This document shows positions 1-7,046 of a stretch of DNA of 64,000 nucleotides, piece after piece. How positions within the stretch are numbered: position 1 is the first letter of the stretch; each line of letters begins with the position of its first letter. The stretch is taken from positions 1 to 64,000 of the forward strand of contig MHAZ01000022.1 in assembly GCA_001803165.1 (NCBI GenBank). The letters are read 5' to 3'. A model generated the notes under the pieces. That model was not told the origin of the DNA and made no database searches. It saw nothing but the letters and a program-made list of their open reading frames with translations. The position numbers and the translations under genes are program-made. The stretch is from Stygiobacter sp. RIFOXYC2_FULL_38_25. Lineage in GTDB: Bacteria; Bacteroidota; Ignavibacteria; Ignavibacteriales; Melioribacteraceae.

Positions 1-406
1 AAGTATGACGTTGAACAATTTTAATGCGGGCACGAAGAGCATCGCGAAGAAGACGGTTATCGTTAGAAATTTTATGAGCGACAGGAATGTAATCCATGCG
101 AAGAAGTTGGGCTAAAGTATGCGAATCAACTTTATCTGTTTTGACTTTAGCATAAGCAATAGCTTTAACATACTTGGCATGAGCAAGAACCATGGGAATG
201 TTAAGAGAAGAAAGCAGATCGCCCAGCCAATACCATGTCATAGTTGACTCGACAGTTGTTATGTTCTCGTTGCCGAGATCAGAGAAATACTGAACGAAGT
301 TATGGTTCACATTTTTAATATCTGCTTCTTTGATAATGTTGCCGGAAGAATCAACTGTGGTTAAGTAAGAAGTGAACTTGTGAAGATCGATACCAGTGTA
401 ATACAT
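1..406 (-). CDS. IS110-family transposase, N-terminal part (runs off the window)
   Basis: Reading the minus strand from the ATG at 404-406 gives an open frame to the window edge that the ORF track missed because it has no stop. It begins MYYTGIDLHKFTSYLTTVD and continues with VESTMTWYW, then KTDKVDSHTLAQLLR. These are the N-terminal DEDD (RuvC-like) features of IS110-family transposases: the first Asp in GIDLHK, the Glu in VEST, and the D-x-x-D of DKVDSH. About 135 residues are visible and the C-terminal Ser-containing domain lies outside. Only about 70 nt separate the start from the cassette sequence to the right, which leaves little room for a bridge RNA on this side; IS1111-type elements carry it at the other end. 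Family call is firm, subgroup is inference. Confidence 0.9.
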   Translation of the reverse strand, partial: MYYTGIDLHKFTSYLTTVDSSGNIIKEADIKNVNHNFVQYFSDLGNENITTVESTMTWYWLGDLLSSLNIPMVLAHAKYVKAIAYAKVKTDKVDSHTLAQLLRMDYIPVAHKISNDNRLLRDALRARIKIVQRHT

Positions 407-472
407 AGATGCCTCCAATAAGCAATTGTTGTTGGAGAAACATTAACTGTTTTTTTACTTATTGGAAATATC
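1..472 (-). mobile_element. IS110-family insertion sequence, one end, abutting a truncated attC site
   Basis: The element consists of the partial transposase plus about 65 nt of non-coding end. The junction with flanking DNA is near 470, where cassette attC sequence (CGCGCCTCAACAGCGACCGCG) starts without its R'' core. Some IS110 relatives (the IS1111-attC group) are known to target integron attC sites, so the position is probably not accidental. The exact end cannot be fixed without the other end or an empty site. Confidence 0.7.
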
Positions 473-675
473 ACGCGCCTCAACAGCGACCGCGTCTATG
501 ACGCAGTCGTTTGATGTAGTTATTGGGTTTAGTTTTTCAGAGTAGGTTTGTTGTTAAAGGTTGATTTGCAGTGCATGACAAAATCCGCTAAGAGCGGTTA
601 ATTATAAATAAAAAGGTTGTTGCTAAAAGCGTCATTGTAGTTATGGGCGGCGCTTTAGTTGCAACGCCGTTATAC
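469..675 (+). other. attC0, integron recombination site truncated by the IS
   Basis: The right half is intact: the L' block GGGCGGCGCTTTAGTTGC is followed by the R' core GTTATAC at 669-675, and the last 35 bp are the same as in attC2 apart from the final base of R'. The L'' side (CTCAACAGCGACCGCG, 478-493) is present but the expected R'' core (xTATAAC) is missing where the IS end begins. The cassette to which this site belonged lies left of the IS. Confidence 0.8.
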
Positions 676-698
676 TTTTTAGGAATGCTAAAAATTGT

Positions 699-2057
699 AT
701 GTTAAATATTGATGATTTGGCAGTAGGAAAATTCTCGTTAGATTTCCCTAAAATTGTTTTAAGTAACAAGAGTGGGAAAGAATACCTTGGGGCCGGGAAT
801 ATATTCCAAGATTCAGATGGTGATTTGCAATTAAAAATGTATTCATATGATGAGGAAGGTTATAGGCTATTTAACAAACTTGGCAAACCCAAACCTGGTC
901 GTATTATTCCCAACAGTCACTATTTTAAATTCAGTGGCAAGGATACTTTTGATCAAGAATGGAAATCTGAGAGAGTTAATTTTGGTTATGACTTATCCGC
1001 TGATTTTAAAAACATTATTATCAAATCAAATATTCACTACATTAAACAAAAGGTTAAAGGGATTGTAAAATTCAATAGGCCTCAATATGTAATCAGATTT
1101 AAGAAAGATATAAGATTCCCAAAAGTTGATTATTATGGCAAAAGTGCAAAATCATATGAAAAGATTAAAAATGATTTTCGAGTAAATATTATTGCAAATT
1201 TTATTCACAATGATTTGGAATTCCTTTTTTATGAAAACGAAAAATGGTATATCGCAGAAGTATTTTCTAACAAAGGTAGACTCAGCGAAAATATCGTAAA
1301 TTATCTTTGTGAAGCTTTACAATTTGTGCTTTCTGCAAATATTTATTGTGTTGTTATAGAAAAATTTGAAGGATATTATGACAGTATCCAAATCAGAAAT
1401 ATCCGCAAATCTAGTCCATCGCATAGAATCCCTCCACCAATAAGTTTTAATTCTGCAAAAACTTCTGATATATGGAAAATGTTTTGCAAATATTATGATT
1501 TTGTTTCTAAAAATAACTCGGTTAATTACCATCCTATATCGCTAAAACTTCACAATCTCATTCAAGCATCTAGCATTTCCTTGGAATCTCAATCATTATC
1601 CATAACTACATTAATAGAAAGTATTGTTATGAATAATTTTGCCTTATATCTCAAAGCAATCGATAAATACGAAATAGATATCGCTAAACTTAAGAAACAT
1701 CTTGTTTCTGATAATTACCAACAAGAGTTTATAGATAGAATTAATGGTTTCTTCCCCTTATTGGTTCGACCTAATCCTAACAATGTTCTAAGAGCGCTAT
1801 TAAATAAAAGACTAATTAAAAAATATCATATAGATACATGGAATGAATTGCGCAACCCGATAGCTCATGGGAAAATAATTGAGTTCAAGGATTATCAAAA
1901 GTATTTAACATTGTGTTATAAATGTCAGTCGCTTTTCAATTTACTTATTTTCCTTCTGATTGAATATCAAGGATATTATAATGATTTCAGCCAATATGGT
2001 TTTAAAATGAAATCGTTTAAAAAAAGTATAACACGCGTCTCAAGCGGAACGCTGTAG
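699..2057 (+). CDS. HEPN-domain protein, ApeA-like candidate anti-phage factor (cassette 1)
   Basis: This 452-residue soluble protein has no signal peptide. Its C-terminal part is helical and carries RNPIAHG at about residues 385-391, the R-x4-H motif of HEPN ribonuclease domains. The N-terminal half is beta-rich (GKFSLDFP, GNIFQDSDGDLQLKMYS) and resembles the N-terminal region of ApeA-type proteins, a family known to give abortive phage defence. The HEPN motif is seen directly, the ApeA link is weaker. It lies 24 bp inside the cassette that starts at 670. Its stop codon (2055-2057) lies inside attC1, so the last residues (TRVSSGTL) are encoded by the recombination site, as is common in compact cassettes. 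Confidence 0.65.
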   Translation: MLNIDDLAVGKFSLDFPKIVLSNKSGKEYLGAGNIFQDSDGDLQLKMYSYDEEGYRLFNKLGKPKPGRIIPNSHYFKFSGKDTFDQEWKSERVNFGYDLSADFKNIIIKSNIHYIKQKVKGIVKFNRPQYVIRFKKDIRFPKVDYYGKSAKSYEKIKNDFRVNIIANFIHNDLEFLFYENEKWYIAEVFSNKGRLSENIVNYLCEALQFVLSANIYCVVIEKFEGYYDSIQIRNIRKSSPSHRIPPPISFNSAKTSDIWKMFCKYYDFVSKNNSVNYHPISLKLHNLIQASSISLESQSLSITTLIESIVMNNFALYLKAIDKYEIDIAKLKKHLVSDNYQQEFIDRINGFFPLLVRPNPNNVLRALLNKRLIKKYHIDTWNELRNPIAHGKIIEFKDYQKYLTLCYKCQSLFNLLIFLLIEYQGYYNDFSQYGFKMKSFKKSITRVSSGTL

Positions 2058-2192
2058 TGGGTCGTGGTATTTATAGTTTATCATTGTAGTGATAGTTGAA
2101 GAAAGGAAGTAAATAAAAAAAACATAAACAATAAGTCGTTGTATTTGTAGCGGCAACCTTTTGGCGTCCGCTTAAACGCAACGTCGTTAGTA
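2026..2192 (+). other. attC1, integron recombination site
   Basis: R'' is GTATAAC at 2026-2032 and R' is GTTAGTA at 2186-2192. L'' (GCGTCTCAAGCGGAACGC) and L' (GCGTCCGCTTAAACGC) pair with extrahelical bases, as in classical attC. Twelve bases ending in R'' (AAAAAGTATAAC) are the exact reverse complement of the start of the same cassette (GTTATACTTTTT at 669-680). The cut point is predicted between 2186 and 2187. Confidence 0.9.
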
Positions 2193-2221
2193 GGCTATCA
2201 AAATTGTTAGGGAGATTATAT

Positions 2222-2803: not shown

Positions 2804-2828
2804 TTATTCGCATTGCTTTATTGTTGCC

Positions 2829-3018
2829 TACTAACCCGCTCTTGCACCCGACCGCATTTTTTCATAGCGGCATTTGGGAAATTATTGAGTTTGGTTAACA
2901 AAGTAAGCGTAGCAATAAAGTTTGTTCTAATAAATAAATTAGTTAAAAATTATTGGCATTGCTTCTTAGTTTCGTCATTGCTGTTATGGGCGGCGCTTTA
3001 GTTGCAACGCCGTTATAT
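2829..3018 (+). other. attC2, integron recombination site
   Basis: R'' is TACTAAC at 2829-2835, with GCTCTTGCACCCGACCGC as L'' region. L' is GGGCGGCGCTTTAGTTGC and R' is GTTATAT at 3012-3018. The ten bases GCCTACTAAC complement GTTAGTAGGC at the start of its own cassette (2186-2195), not the neighbouring R', which supports cassette 2 as a mobile unit. The track ORF 2813-3001 lies wholly in this site and is a shadow. Confidence 0.9.
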
Positions 3019-3029
3019 TGTTTGAAGAT

Positions 3030-3821
3030 ATGAAAAGAATTTTCAAAAATATTGTTATGGGATTGACAATAATATTGTTCCTTAACTCGTGCAATTCTAT
3101 CACTGAATCAATTCCGTCTCCTCTTGAATACCCAACTAATTTATTCTCAATTGGTAGAGTAAAAGCCGATTCTATCCAAAATTCAATTCGAAGTAATGAT
3201 TTCTTTTCTTACATAGATGAATATGGTTTATTCTCATTCTCTGGAACATTAGGTAGAGGGAACTCAAATATCACTGATAAAAACGTTGCAATCCGCTTGG
3301 CAAAAGAAGCTTTACTCAAATATTCCAAATATTCAAATGTTAGTGATACTACAAAACTAGAATTAAATGAAGCTACTAATTATAATCCTTCACCACTTCA
3401 TTTTACCGATTGGATTGTATCATTCAAGAACCAGAAGTATAATGGAATTGAAGTTTTAAATACTGGCATAATCGTGGTTCTTCATAATCAAGTAAGTCAA
3501 ATAATTGGGCATCATTTCAAAGAAATATCAATTCCTATAAATGGCACATTATCAAAAGATAAATTAGAAAATATATTGGTTGGTAAAAAATTAGAAATGA
3601 TGTGTAAGACTAAAATAGAAATAACAATAACTCATGAAATGATACTAAAAAATAAAATTGCCCAAAATATTATTTGGCGTGAGCTAAATGGTATTATAGA
3701 ATTAAGACTTACTTGGAATATTCCTATATCAACTTCTAATGATGATAATGTTAGTTGGAATGTATGGGTAGATATATTAAGCGGTGAAATATTATTCTAT
3801 AGCCCAACTTTTATATGTTGA
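3030..3821 (+). CDS. Hypothetical lipoprotein (cassette 3)
   Basis: I choose ATG 3030 over the track's TTG at 3018, because 3018 lies inside the R' core of attC2 and the ATG gives a clean lipoprotein signal (MKRIFKNIVMGLTIILFLNSC, Cys at residue 21). The 263-residue product has a repeated amphipathic layout ending SWNVWVDILSGEILFY, reminiscent of PepSY-like export or inhibitor domains, but I cannot assign a family. The ribosome binding site is weak. The gene begins 17 nt after the cassette boundary and attC3 follows its stop by 6 nt, a very compact cassette. Confidence 0.72.
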   Translation: MKRIFKNIVMGLTIILFLNSCNSITESIPSPLEYPTNLFSIGRVKADSIQNSIRSNDFFSYIDEYGLFSFSGTLGRGNSNITDKNVAIRLAKEALLKYSKYSNVSDTTKLELNEATNYNPSPLHFTDWIVSFKNQKYNGIEVLNTGIIVVLHNQVSQIIGHHFKEISIPINGTLSKDKLENILVGKKLEMMCKTKIEITITHEMILKNKIAQNIIWRELNGIIELRLTWNIPISTSNDDNVSWNVWVDILSGEILFYSPTFIC

Positions 3822-3827
3822 AAAACA

Positions 3828-4015
3828 GTATAACCAGTTCTTCAAGACCGACCGCTTTAAACGTAGCGGCATTTGTGTAGTTATAAAGCTACGTTGTAAA
3901 AGTTAGTAGCTCTTTGAGTGTAGTTAACAAAATGAAATAATAAATAATTATTGGCGTTGATTTTACAAAGCTGCAAAGTTGTGCTGGGCGGCGGCTTAAA
4001 ACAATGCCGTTATAC
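3828..4015 (+). other. attC3, integron recombination site
   Basis: R'' is GTATAAC (3828-3834), followed by L'' TTCTTCAAGACCGACCGC. L' is GGGCGGCGGCTTAAAACA and R' is GTTATAC (4009-4015). These L boxes resemble those of well-known mobile-integron attC sites such as the aadA site. The R'' end complements the start of cassette 3 over about 12 bases with one G-T mismatch. Confidence 0.92.
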
Positions 4016-4025
4016 GTGCAAGATT

Positions 4026-4661
4026 ATGAGTGAAATAAAATATCATAGATTGTTTTGGTGGATAGAAGGCATATCAGCTATTCTACTCTTTATTGCCTTA
4101 TATACAAATTTAATACACAAAGTTGATTTGATAATTAGTATTGGTATTTATCTATTATTATCATCAATCTTTTATTTCGCCCTTGACTTACGTGTTGTTA
4201 CAAAAGTATCTGATAAGTTAAAAGACGAGCTAAAAGATTACAACAACCCCAATATAGAGCGATTAAACAAAGCTTCTGTCTTTATTAATCTAATAAAAGT
4301 CCTAGTACTGTTATTTATTATAGTTATTGGTAATAAATCCATGGTACAGTTAAATCATTGGATTAATGCAGTTGTGATCGTTATGTTTTTCGGTGTATTA
4401 TTAATTCTAATATACCTCTACCTAAAAAACGTATTGTTGTCTTACAGTTATCCAAATACATCATTAATGCATTTAATTAAGAACTTTATTTTTTATTATA
4501 ATAAAAAGGATAATAGATCAATAGTAGATAAACCTATAGGCATAGGTTCAACAATAAATTTTGCTACAAAAGAAGGTAAGTTCATTTTTTTATTGTTGCT
4601 TTTTCCACCAATTGTAATAGTAGTATCAATTTTAATTCTCAAATCACTTGGTAAAATATAA
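4026..4661 (+). CDS. Hypothetical multi-pass membrane protein (cassette 4)
   Basis: The track start at 3951 lies inside attC3, so I use ATG 4026 (MSEIKYHRLFWW), ten nt after R'. The 211-residue protein has about five membrane segments (roughly residues 10-29, 33-52, 87-102, 113-133 and 187-207). A charged cytoplasmic stretch (KVSDKLKDELKDYNNPN) lies between segments 2 and 3. No transport, enzymatic or immunity motif is recognised. It is the only gene of its cassette; attC4, a degraded site, follows. Function unknown. Confidence 0.7.
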   Translation: MSEIKYHRLFWWIEGISAILLFIALYTNLIHKVDLIISIGIYLLLSSIFYFALDLRVVTKVSDKLKDELKDYNNPNIERLNKASVFINLIKVLVLLFIIVIGNKSMVQLNHWINAVVIVMFFGVLLILIYLYLKNVLLSYSYPNTSLMHLIKNFIFYYNKKDNRSIVDKPIGIGSTINFATKEGKFIFLLLLFPPIVIVVSILILKSLGKI

Positions 4662-4667
4662 ATGCAC

Positions 4668-4832
4668 GTATAACCTGCAACTCAAACCGACTACTGTATT
4701 CGGCTTATTATTTGCTGTTTAGCTTTGCAGTGTTTTTTGAAAATAAGAAGTAACTAGATAATATAATCAGTAAAAGAAAAAACGTTGGCAGCGTAAACCT
4801 TTTGGCAGCCGTAGTGAATAATAATTGACACA
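4668..4832 (+). other. attC4, degraded integron recombination site
   Basis: R'' GTATAAC (4668-4674) is intact, and TGCACGTATAAC is an exact 12-base complement of the start of cassette 4 (GTTATACGTGCA). L'' (CAACTCAAACCGACTAC) is recognisable. The right half is decayed: AACCTTTTGGCAGCCG matches attC1's right arm, but the L' core and any GTTRRRY-like R' are lost. Cassettes 4 and 5 would therefore behave as one fused unit. Confidence 0.65.
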
Positions 4833-4883
4833 AAATTTGAAAATAAGGAAGTCCAATTAAGCTATTAAAAAAACGAGACTATT

Positions 4884-5372
4884 ATGTTTGTTAAAGAAGC
4901 GACTGTTGTAATTTTGGTAGTAGCATTTTTTTCAGTAGCGCTAGCAGAAAATAATTCTGATTTCTATTATTCTAAAGGAGATTCAACAAAAATGACACCG
5001 CAAGAAATAATAATTGCAAAAGAAAAAGCAATACTAGACAGATGGATAACCGGCGATACATTCGGATTTATTGAAGCTGCCGCCGAAGAAATAACCTATT
5101 TTGATCCCGGTTTAGAAAAACGCTGTACAGGTAAAAAAGAATTTTATGATTGGATTGCCCCTTTCAATGGGACATTCAGCTTTCCCAACTATGAATTTAT
5201 TGATCCGCAGGTTCAAATGCATGGTGATGTTGGTGTTCTTACTTTTAATTTTATTGGGTTTATGCAGGATGGCAGTAAAGAGTATTTTAATACAACTGAA
5301 GTATACAGACTGATTGATGGGGATTGGAAGCTAATAAGTTCTCACTGGTCACAAACTAAACCTAAAAGATGA
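4884..5372 (+). CDS. Secreted NTF2-like (DUF4440/SnoaL-like) protein
   Basis: This 162-residue protein has an N-terminal signal peptide (MFVKEATVVILVVAFFSVALA) and a mature NTF2-like alpha+beta cone fold pattern. It shows an amphipathic helix (EIIIAKEKAILDRWITGD), then EEITYFDPG, FYDWIAPFNGTF, and the closing strands TTEVYRLIDGDWKLISSHWS, typical of DUF4440 ketosteroid-isomerase-like proteins. Such domains bind small hydrophobic ligands or act as accessory modules; no specific reaction can be assigned. It is the gene of cassette 5, whose left boundary is lost with the degraded attC4. attC5 lies 92 bp downstream. Confidence 0.78.
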   Translation: MFVKEATVVILVVAFFSVALAENNSDFYYSKGDSTKMTPQEIIIAKEKAILDRWITGDTFGFIEAAAEEITYFDPGLEKRCTGKKEFYDWIAPFNGTFSFPNYEFIDPQVQMHGDVGVLTFNFIGFMQDGSKEYFNTTEVYRLIDGDWKLISSHWSQTKPKR

Positions 5373-5464
5373 TATTTGATTAAAAAGAAATGTTCATTTA
5401 CTATATGATTAGTCAAAGAAAATATATTTATTACATAGGCAGTAGTTAAATAAAGTACAAAACG

Positions 5465-5585
5465 GTATAGCCCTTTATTTAAGCCGACCGCTTCTTCGAT
5501 ACAGTTGTTTGAAGTAAAATAACGTTGCTTTGATAATTGCTGGTCTGTTGTTATGGGCGGCGGGTTAAGCGCAACGTCGTTGGGC
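5465..5585 (+). other. attC5, integron recombination site
   Basis: R'' is GTATAGC (5465-5471) and L'' is TTTAAGCCGACCGC. L' is GGCGGGTTAAGCGCAACG and R' is GTTGGGC (5579-5585), a perfect GTTRRRY consensus. At 121 bp it is the shortest site here. No matching start for its own cassette is found upstream, consistent with loss of the cassette 5 left boundary. Confidence 0.88.
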
Positions 5586-5603
5586 ATCATATTAATAACA
5601 AAT

Positions 5604-5718
5604 GACCTCTGAAATATTAAGACTAAGTCATGGTGAGCTTGTCGAACCATGACAATACAAACTAAATTGTCACACTTCGACAGGCTCAGTGTGACACTAA
5701 ATTAATTATTCAGAGGTC
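5604..5718. repeat. MITE-like element: two hairpins inside a 10-bp terminal inverted repeat
   Basis: GACCTCTGAA (5604-5613) and TTCAGAGGTC (5709-5718) are perfect inverted repeats. They enclose two palindromes: GTCATGGTGAGC...CCATGAC (5627-5653) and GTCACACTTCGACAGGCTC...GTGAC (5669-5695). Palindromes with TTCGACAGGCTCAGTGTGAC-type cores are common interspersed elements in many genomes. This one sits in cassette 6 between the R' of attC5 and the gene. Confidence 0.75.
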
Positions 5719-5776
5719 TCAACAAATGAATCTGTAATAAATTATTCTATGTTTTTTAATTAAAAGGTAGGTAGAA

Positions 5777-6637
5777 ATGTCAAAGTTCAGAAAATTAGCC
5801 CCCCTTATTTTTGTCATTTTGTTTCCCTCTTTGTCATTATCTCAAGTAAGAGAATCGTCAGAAAAAATCACGGTAATGACACTAGGGGTTTTTCATTTCA
5901 ATTTTCCTAATCTGGATGTACAAAAAGTTGATGATAAAGATAAGATTGATGTTTTAGAAGAAAAGTATCAAAAGGAAATTGTCAAGATTATAGGTGCACT
6001 AAAAAAATTCAAGCCAACCAAGATTGCGATTGAGGCAAATCCTGCTTCCCAAAAAAAAATTGATTCATTGTATAAAGCATATAGGTTTGGCAAACATTCA
6101 CTTGGAAGAAATGAAATTGAACAGTTGGGATTCCGCCTAGCGAGTGAACTGAAAATTGAGAAGTTGGAATGCGTTGATACATGGGGCAAAACTTATGAAA
6201 GTCTAAACTATTTGCTTATTGATAGCTCTTCCAGGGCGAAAGCGTTTGAGCAATATTATTTCAACAATCCAGATACTATATATAAGAAGAAAAGCTCCGG
6301 TAAAAGTCTTTTAAAAATTGAAGGGATTACAAATAATTTACTATACTTGAATGATTCCCAAATTATAAAAGAAAGTTTGGGACCTTATCTCATTGGACAT
6401 TTTAAGTATGAGGAAAAAGCAGATGATTTTACCGGAGTTGATTTTGAAACTGGGAGATGGTTTAATCGTAATCTGAGAATATTTCGTAACATACAAAGAA
6501 TTACAAAAAGTACTTCTGATAGGATCCTCGTCATTTTTGGAGCTGGGCATATGAACATACTAAACTATCTTTTTGAATGTTCACCTGAATACAAGTTAGT
6601 TAGTCCGGAATCATTCTTAAGAAAAGCAAAAAAATAA
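5777..6637 (+). CDS. DUF5694-family protein with signal peptide (cassette 6)
   Basis: The 286-residue product starts with a signal peptide (MSKFRKLAPLIFVILFPSLSLSQ). Then comes VMTLGVFHFNFPNLDVQKVD, the characteristic opening of DUF5694 proteins, and near the C-terminus LVIFGAGHMNILNYLFE, the conserved G-x-GH segment. DUF5694 is thought to be related to TraB/TIKI-like metalloprotease folds, with the N-terminal FHF and the GAGH histidines as putative metal ligands; the activity is unproven. AGGTAGG lies 7 nt before the ATG. The gene sits far (about 190 bp) from its cassette start because of the inserted MITE-like element. Confidence 0.78.
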   Translation: MSKFRKLAPLIFVILFPSLSLSQVRESSEKITVMTLGVFHFNFPNLDVQKVDDKDKIDVLEEKYQKEIVKIIGALKKFKPTKIAIEANPASQKKIDSLYKAYRFGKHSLGRNEIEQLGFRLASELKIEKLECVDTWGKTYESLNYLLIDSSSRAKAFEQYYFNNPDTIYKKKSSGKSLLKIEGITNNLLYLNDSQIIKESLGPYLIGHFKYEEKADDFTGVDFETGRWFNRNLRIFRNIQRITKSTSDRILVIFGAGHMNILNYLFECSPEYKLVSPESFLRKAKK

Positions 6638-6647
6638 ATAGGAAAAT

Positions 6648-6904
6648 GCCTATCCGCCGCTCAATACGGACAGCCCCGCAATACTACTGCAGGGTAAACT
6701 ATTTTCAGTGCGGTGTCCGCCAGAAAACTGCGAACAGGTTTGTGTAATTGAAAAGTTGTGTAAAAAAGTAAATTGCTTTTTGAATGTTGTTAAGTAATCA
6801 AAGTTATTAATGAATTATAGTCGTAGGTTTTTCCTCCGAAGGAGTCCCTTCGGGAAAAGCTGCATTGATGTGTTGGCGGCGGCTTAAAAACAACGCCGTT
6901 ATTC
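6648..6904 (+). other. attC6, long integron recombination site
   Basis: R' is GTTATTC (6898-6904) with L' GTTGGCGGCGGCTTAAAAAC. R'' is degenerate (GCCTATC, 6648-6654) but AATGCCTATC still partly complements GTTGGGCATC at the start of its cassette. The 257-bp site contains a palindrome (CTCCGAAGGAGTCCCTTCGG) and about 100 bp almost identical to the interior of attC7. Confidence 0.8.
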
Positions 6905-7046
6905 CGTAAAAGGAAAGATTGAGCTGTAATTCTTTTCTTAGCAAATTTATTCTGGTAAGTGAGCTTAATGGAGGCTCGCTTCTGTCCGGAGGTATCTGAA
7001 CGTTATGTCACATAATCGTGCGAATAAACCTCAAGGAAAATATATT

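What the first reader, a model, noticed from the sequence alone, without database searches (positions are those of the whole stretch)
1..500. IS110-family element inserted at an attC site
The transposase reading frame ends about 65 nt from a site that keeps L'', L' and R' but lacks the R'' core. IS1111-attC elements are known to target attC sites. IS110-family elements use a bridge RNA to choose targets; the short non-coding left end here implies the RNA lies at the unseen end. An IS in this lineage with attC as target would be a useful case of target specificity.
Basis: partly seen in the sequence, partly recalled or inferred. Interest (0 to 1): 0.68.

Follow-up and report, generated by a model that had tools for sequence, protein, structure and literature searches.

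The report
RNA-guided jumping gene targets attC sites
The window starts inside a truncated IS110-family jumping gene that sits at one exact point of an integron recombination site (attC), and its relatives in several bacterial phyla do the same with guide-RNA sequences that match that site; the principle was known from Pseudomonas and Klebsiella elements, but this lineage and its guide layout appear undescribed.

Summary
The window begins at a contig edge, so only 135 codons are present. Intact homologous attC sites in relatives align from exactly window base 472 and carry the missing R'' (..YYTAA|CA..), so the insertion lies inside R''. The lost end was found: identical 84-bp right ends close contig C8 and open contig C19, each directly after a cassette's R''. 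A related complete copy (C16) is also in an attC. All these junctions share position and orientation. About 40 relatives across several phyla form one transposase clade; 19/19 right flanks begin GTTR and 24/39 left flanks show attC arms. Downstream of the transposase lies a bridge RNA with a covarying stem (96.5% paired, 7 doubly compensated pairs). One guide encodes the R box (GYCUAAC, usually overlapping the transposase stop codon); the other matches each element's own left flank over 5 nt (p<=5e-5). Direct precedents exist (ISKpn4, ISPst6, ISPa25). This copy's own bridge RNA is not in the assembly. The mechanism is inferred, not tested.

The parts
2..406 (-). 5' part (135 codons) of an IS110-family DEDD transposase, cut by the contig edge
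   Evidence: PF01548 1.5e-11; NF033542; D7, E53, D91/D94 conserved in alignment
407..471 (-). non-coding left end (LE) of the IS, starting ATATTTCC after the TG core
   Evidence: conserved TGATATTTCCAATAAGTAAAAA in relatives
452..463 (-). left copy of the subterminal inverted repeat AATAAGTAAAAA; its partner TTTTTACTTATT is in the right ends on C8 and C19
   Evidence: 8-17 bp repeats in relatives with a constant 3-nt left/right offset; right-end copies
472..473 (.). insertion point / core (CA; TG on the IS strand); the C is the last base of R'' (AAC)
   Evidence: intact attC homologues align from exactly this base
472..675 (+). remnant of the attC: L'' (from 474), central part, L' and R' (GTTATAC 669-675); R'' displaced by the IS
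   Evidence: about 80% identical over about 200 nt to intact attC sites in relatives; L'-R' matrix p=0.0017
670..2033 (+). first gene cassette after the IS (ORF 699-2057, no confident Pfam family); begins TTATAC and its R'' is GTATAAC
   Evidence: sequence; Pfam
2028..2197 (+). second attC of the array (intact; R'' GTATAAC, R' GTTAGTA)
   Evidence: sequence, L'-R' motif
2826..7000 (+). further cassettes with attC L'-R' boxes near 3005, 5572 and 6891
   Evidence: motif scan

Best explanation
The feature is the left end of a bridge-RNA-guided IS110-family element of IS1111-like layout (about 1.35 kb in relatives), inserted between the R'' box and L'' of a cassette attC in an Ignavibacteria chromosomal integron. 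Inferred mechanism: the transposase binds an RNA from the region overlapping and following its 3' end. One guide segment, 5'-GYCUAAC, pairs with the attC R box (GTTRRRC) on one DNA strand. The other, about 5 nt plus the core (GCGCU-UG type), pairs with the L''-proximal sequence on the other strand. The circular element, joined RE-core-LE, is then recombined into the site, always in one orientation. The insertion separates R'' from L''/L'/R', so that attC should no longer fold into a recombinogenic hairpin and the two neighbouring cassettes should become locked together. Shown here: site, position, orientation, recurrence, RNA stem covariation, guide-flank matches. Inferred: RNA expression, circle formation, pairing, loss of attC function.
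For: Empty sites in relatives begin exactly at the junction. Two identical right ends at cassette R'' boxes on C8 and C19 and a third element in an attC on C16; on C8 and C19 the R'' pairs with the start of the same cassette. One clade of attC-targeting transposases (81/90 support, one change). Right flanks GTTR 19/19. attC arms in 24/39 clade left flanks against 0/6 non-clade flanks at the same cut-offs. Left guide matches own left flank at positions -1 to -5 in 83/115 cells and 1/23 at -6, permutation p<=5e-5, 0.0024 for non-redundant attC-clade members; the same guide position fits the different, non-attC targets of six outgroup elements, 29/30. Right guide matches the R box 7 nt deep, permutation p=0.02-0.04 beyond the shared GTTA. 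Outer RNA stem 96.5% paired, 7 of 9 pairs doubly compensated, covariation 0.563 against 0.153 shuffled. In L066 the TAAC guide is out of frame with the stop codon yet still matches its flank 9/9.
Against: The RNA of the window copy itself is not assembled. No expression or transposition data. Some left flanks of relatives (L025, L027, L029, L031, L035b, L077, L088) lack a recognisable attC by the two tests. Right-guide covariation is weak because nearly all R boxes are alike. The first core base differs between the two ends in several elements (TG left, GG right). Thermodynamic folding supports the outer stem but gives only modest overall stability (z about -2.1 to -2.3).
Confidence: 0.87

Rival explanations
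1. The element recognises the folded attC hairpin (structure), as the integron integrase does, and the sequence matches in the RNA are secondary.
For: Most insertions lie in attC sites, whose bottom strand folds; attC sites vary in sequence but share structure.
Against: Left-guide identity tracks the individual left flank, including in outgroup elements whose targets are not attC. A site without recognisable attC arms still fits the guides (L027: CCGCT-TG-TTAGGC). Known IS1111 seekRNAs include one for a short linear target (PMC11187229).
Confidence: 0.08
2. The transposase was carried in as part of a gene cassette, or the junction comes from homologous recombination or misassembly, and the IS has no attC specificity.
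For: The contig ends inside the element, so one side of this copy is not contiguous.
Against: Two identical right ends at two different R'' boxes in the same genome; exact empty sites in other genomes; about 40 insertions with the same geometry across phyla.
Confidence: 0.03
3. Chance: integron arrays are simply permissive insertion areas for any IS.
For: Cassette arrays often hold IS elements (PMC12444791).
Against: Single-nucleotide precision, one orientation and 19/19 GTTR right flanks; outgroup IS110 elements do not sit in attC.
Confidence: 0.01

Closest known systems
IS1111-attC group / ISKpn4, ISPst6, ISPa25 (Tetu & Holmes 2008; Post & Hall 2009; Siddiquee et al. 2024, PMC11187229)
   Same: IS110/IS1111-type elements targeting one end of attC, long non-coding region downstream of tnp, seekRNA segments matching both strands of the target, with the top-strand-complementary segment 5' of the bottom-strand one
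   Different: Here in Ignavibacteria and other phyla; ends mostly with longer terminal extensions (about 10/7 nt including core instead of 7/3); R-box guide overlaps the tnp stop codon.
IS4321/IS5075 (IS1111 family)
   Same: DEDD transposase of the same family
   Different: 22-27% transposase identity; targets Tn21-family inverted repeats (literature), not attC
IS621 / ISCro4 (recombinases with solved structures)
   Same: homologous transposase (E 1e-7 to 8e-7); bridge RNA with target and donor guides in IS621
   Different: IS621 is IS110-type: RNA in the left end, other targets (PMC11208160)

Membership tests
IS110 family (DEDD transposase) | PF01548 plus PF02371 / NF033542 transposase with DEDD residues | tested here: met
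   Window fragment PF01548 1.5e-11; full relative L027 NF033542 171 bits against cut-off 140; PF02371 in the C16 copy
IS1111 group | long non-coding region with RNA downstream of tnp, short left end | tested here: met
   short left ends and roughly 250-330 nt right ends with a conserved RNA in full-length relatives
IS1111 group | subterminal inverted repeats of 11-13 bp with 7/3 (or 6/3) terminal extensions | tested here: inconclusive
   repeats of 8-17 bp present; extensions 6/3 in L066/L067 but 9-11/6-8 in the others, with a constant offset of 3
IS1111-attC group (ISPst6, ISKpn4) | insertion at one end of attC in one orientation | tested here: met
IS1111-attC group (ISPst6, ISKpn4) | transposase falls in the same clade as ISPst6/ISKpn4 | not tested
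   reference transposases could not be retrieved
Bridge RNA / seekRNA elements | RNA with two guide segments matching both target strands | tested here: met
   by sequence and covariation in relatives; not for the window copy, whose RNA is not assembled
Bridge RNA / seekRNA elements | RNA binds the transposase and directs insertion | not testable with these tools
   needs biochemistry

The most novel reading that the evidence does not exclude
An old, multi-phylum lineage of RNA-guided transposons took integron attC sites as its dedicated niche, independently of the Pseudomonas IS1111-attC group, by writing the integrase core-site consensus (GTTRRRC) into its guide RNA. That guide was merged with the transposase stop codon, so target choice and protein end share the same seven bases.
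Probability: 0.5. Interest if true: 0.65.

Novelty: new variant of a known kind. Interest (0 to 1): 0.5.

Why it matters
It gives a natural set of about 40 elements in which the target (attC) and the guide RNA can be compared across phyla. It also extends RNA-guided parasitism of integrons beyond the Proteobacteria where it was described. Such insertions split attC and should lock cassettes in place, which bears on why chromosomal arrays become static. The guide-stop-codon overlap is a concrete constraint on how far the target can drift.

Tried and rejected
Viral contigs: no relatives. Plasmid and phage records: only distant IS110 proteins, at most about 34% identity. ISKpn4/ISPst6/ISPa21 sequences sought via pKPN4, GES-5 integrons and IS4321 neighbours: not found. 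Tetu & Holmes 2008 not held. A simple L''/L' complementarity test failed for the long, imperfect attC sites of Ignavibacteria, so an independent L'-R' matrix was used. The first idea, that GCCTAA..ATATC (start of the 3' stem) was the right guide, was dropped for GYCTAACTG, because it did not fit other phyla and the order of guides known for IS1111 points upstream.

Full report
OBSERVATION. The window is bases 1-64000 of contig C22 of a 4.4 Mb, 22-contig genome. Carriers of the nearest named transposases are Ignavibacteria such as Stygiobacter and Melioribacter MAGs. At the left edge an open frame runs off the contig on the minus strand (2-418; first ATG at 406) and matches the IS110 transposase N-domain. 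From 472 to 675 the sequence is an attC lacking R''.

EMPTY SITES. A search of 39 related genomes with window 470-2200 found attC sites 77-86% identical. In L116 and L118 the alignment begins at exactly base 472, and the bases before it are ..aactAA and ..acctAA, i.e. an intact R'' (..TAA|C) where the window has the IS end. The insertion point is therefore inside R'', before its last base.

THE MISSING END. A pattern from relatives' right ends hits two places in the genome, the last 84 bp of contig C8 and the first 84 bp of C19, identical to each other. On C8 the preceding cassette begins TTATACGC after its attC and ends GCGTATAAC directly before the IS end. On C19 the cassette begins GTTAGGCAAC and ends GTTGCCTAAC before the IS end. 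Cassette start and R'' are complementary, as expected for integrons. C8 also carries an integron integrase (TIGR02249, 328 bits for the main piece) followed by attC sites in the same orientation. So there are at least two copies of this element, collapsed by the assembler; only one left end (C22) is assembled. A third, related, complete element on C16 also splits an attC between R'' (GGGTATAAC) and L''. No member of the clade was found outside an attC in this genome. The remaining IS110 transposase (C19:17153) is a different branch.

RELATIVES. 146 related genomes and the GTDB species set gave about 40 insertions with transposases mostly 49-100% identical. Left ends read [TG]GATATTTCC or close variants, and right flanks GTTR in 19 of 19. 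attC arms were recognised in 24 of 39 clade left flanks by either of two tests, and in 0 of 6 non-clade flanks. The transposase tree puts attC users in one clade (81/90). The window's copy is 92% identical to L026 from another family of the order, which suggests horizontal spread. Ends carry subterminal inverted repeats of 8-17 bp with a constant 3-nt asymmetry.

GUIDE RNA. Downstream of tnp the full-length relatives share: an outer stem (its 5' arm inside the end of tnp), a segment GYCTAACTG or similar, an inner stem-loop, then NNNNN-TG-ATTGGG and the outer stem's 3' arm. The outer stem is 96.5% paired with seven doubly compensated pairs. The five bases before TG/GG match the element's own left flank (83/115 cells; only 1/23 at the sixth position; permutation p<=5e-5). 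The same rule holds in outgroup elements with other targets (29/30). The reverse complement of GYCTAAC is the attC R box; it fits right flanks over 7 nt. In outgroup L072 the right guide matches its non-attC flank over 9 nt (p=0.001); in L071 and L073 no significant match was found. In all but one of the members checked, TAA in this guide is also the transposase stop codon; in L066, where the frame has shifted, the guide remains and matches 9 of 9. Donor guides were noted by eye only: RNA AAAUAUC is the complement of the left-end GATATTT, and RNA AAGAGG/AAGCGG resembles the right-end terminus.

COMPARISON. [quoted passage not shown] for ISPa25 this is predicted (PMC11187229). The IS1111-attC group in Pseudomonas was defined by Tetu & Holmes 2008 (not held; cited from memory and from references in held papers). 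ISPa21 in attC of GES-5 integrons has been suggested to immobilise cassettes (PMC11616780). Integrons in Ignavibacteriae are known (PMC9024848). A paper search for Ignavibacteria with integron and attC terms found only that one. Thus the kind is known; the lineage, host range and stop-codon overlap appear new, with the caveat that the known transposases could not be compared directly.

LIMITS. The window copy's RNA is in the gap. All function is inferred from sequence. The mismatch of the first core base between ends (TG left, GG right in several elements) and left flanks without attC arms (e.g. L077, L035b) remain unexplained.

Noticed in passing
L110 4752-5857 (G000:C8:48751-49856): The integron integrase gene is split into two overlapping frames (134 + 234 aa): a frameshift or an assembly error. 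It points in the same direction as the cassettes.
   Followed up: partly
L029, between its left guide and the outer stem: A short palindromic insert (TGCCTACCGGCAGGCA) sits inside the bridge RNA next to the left guide.
   Followed up: no
L077, L035 near 3265 and L088 left flanks: Left ends of the clade next to sequences such as GTATAACGGC or GCTAACGGCG that resemble R'-L' rather than L''-R''; possibly insertions at the other attC end or footprints.
   Followed up: no
L017 ~8578, L019 ~10404, L006 (contigs C2, C17, C12): Single attC-like sites scattered outside the main arrays.
   Followed up: no
L036, L038, L039: A related Ignavibacteria IS110 group inserts at ATCCGTG / ATTCGTG sequences, with left guides that match.
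   Followed up: partly
L110 8748-9986 and 10071-11555: Two integron cassettes encode proteins with Por secretion-tail sorting domains.
   Followed up: no
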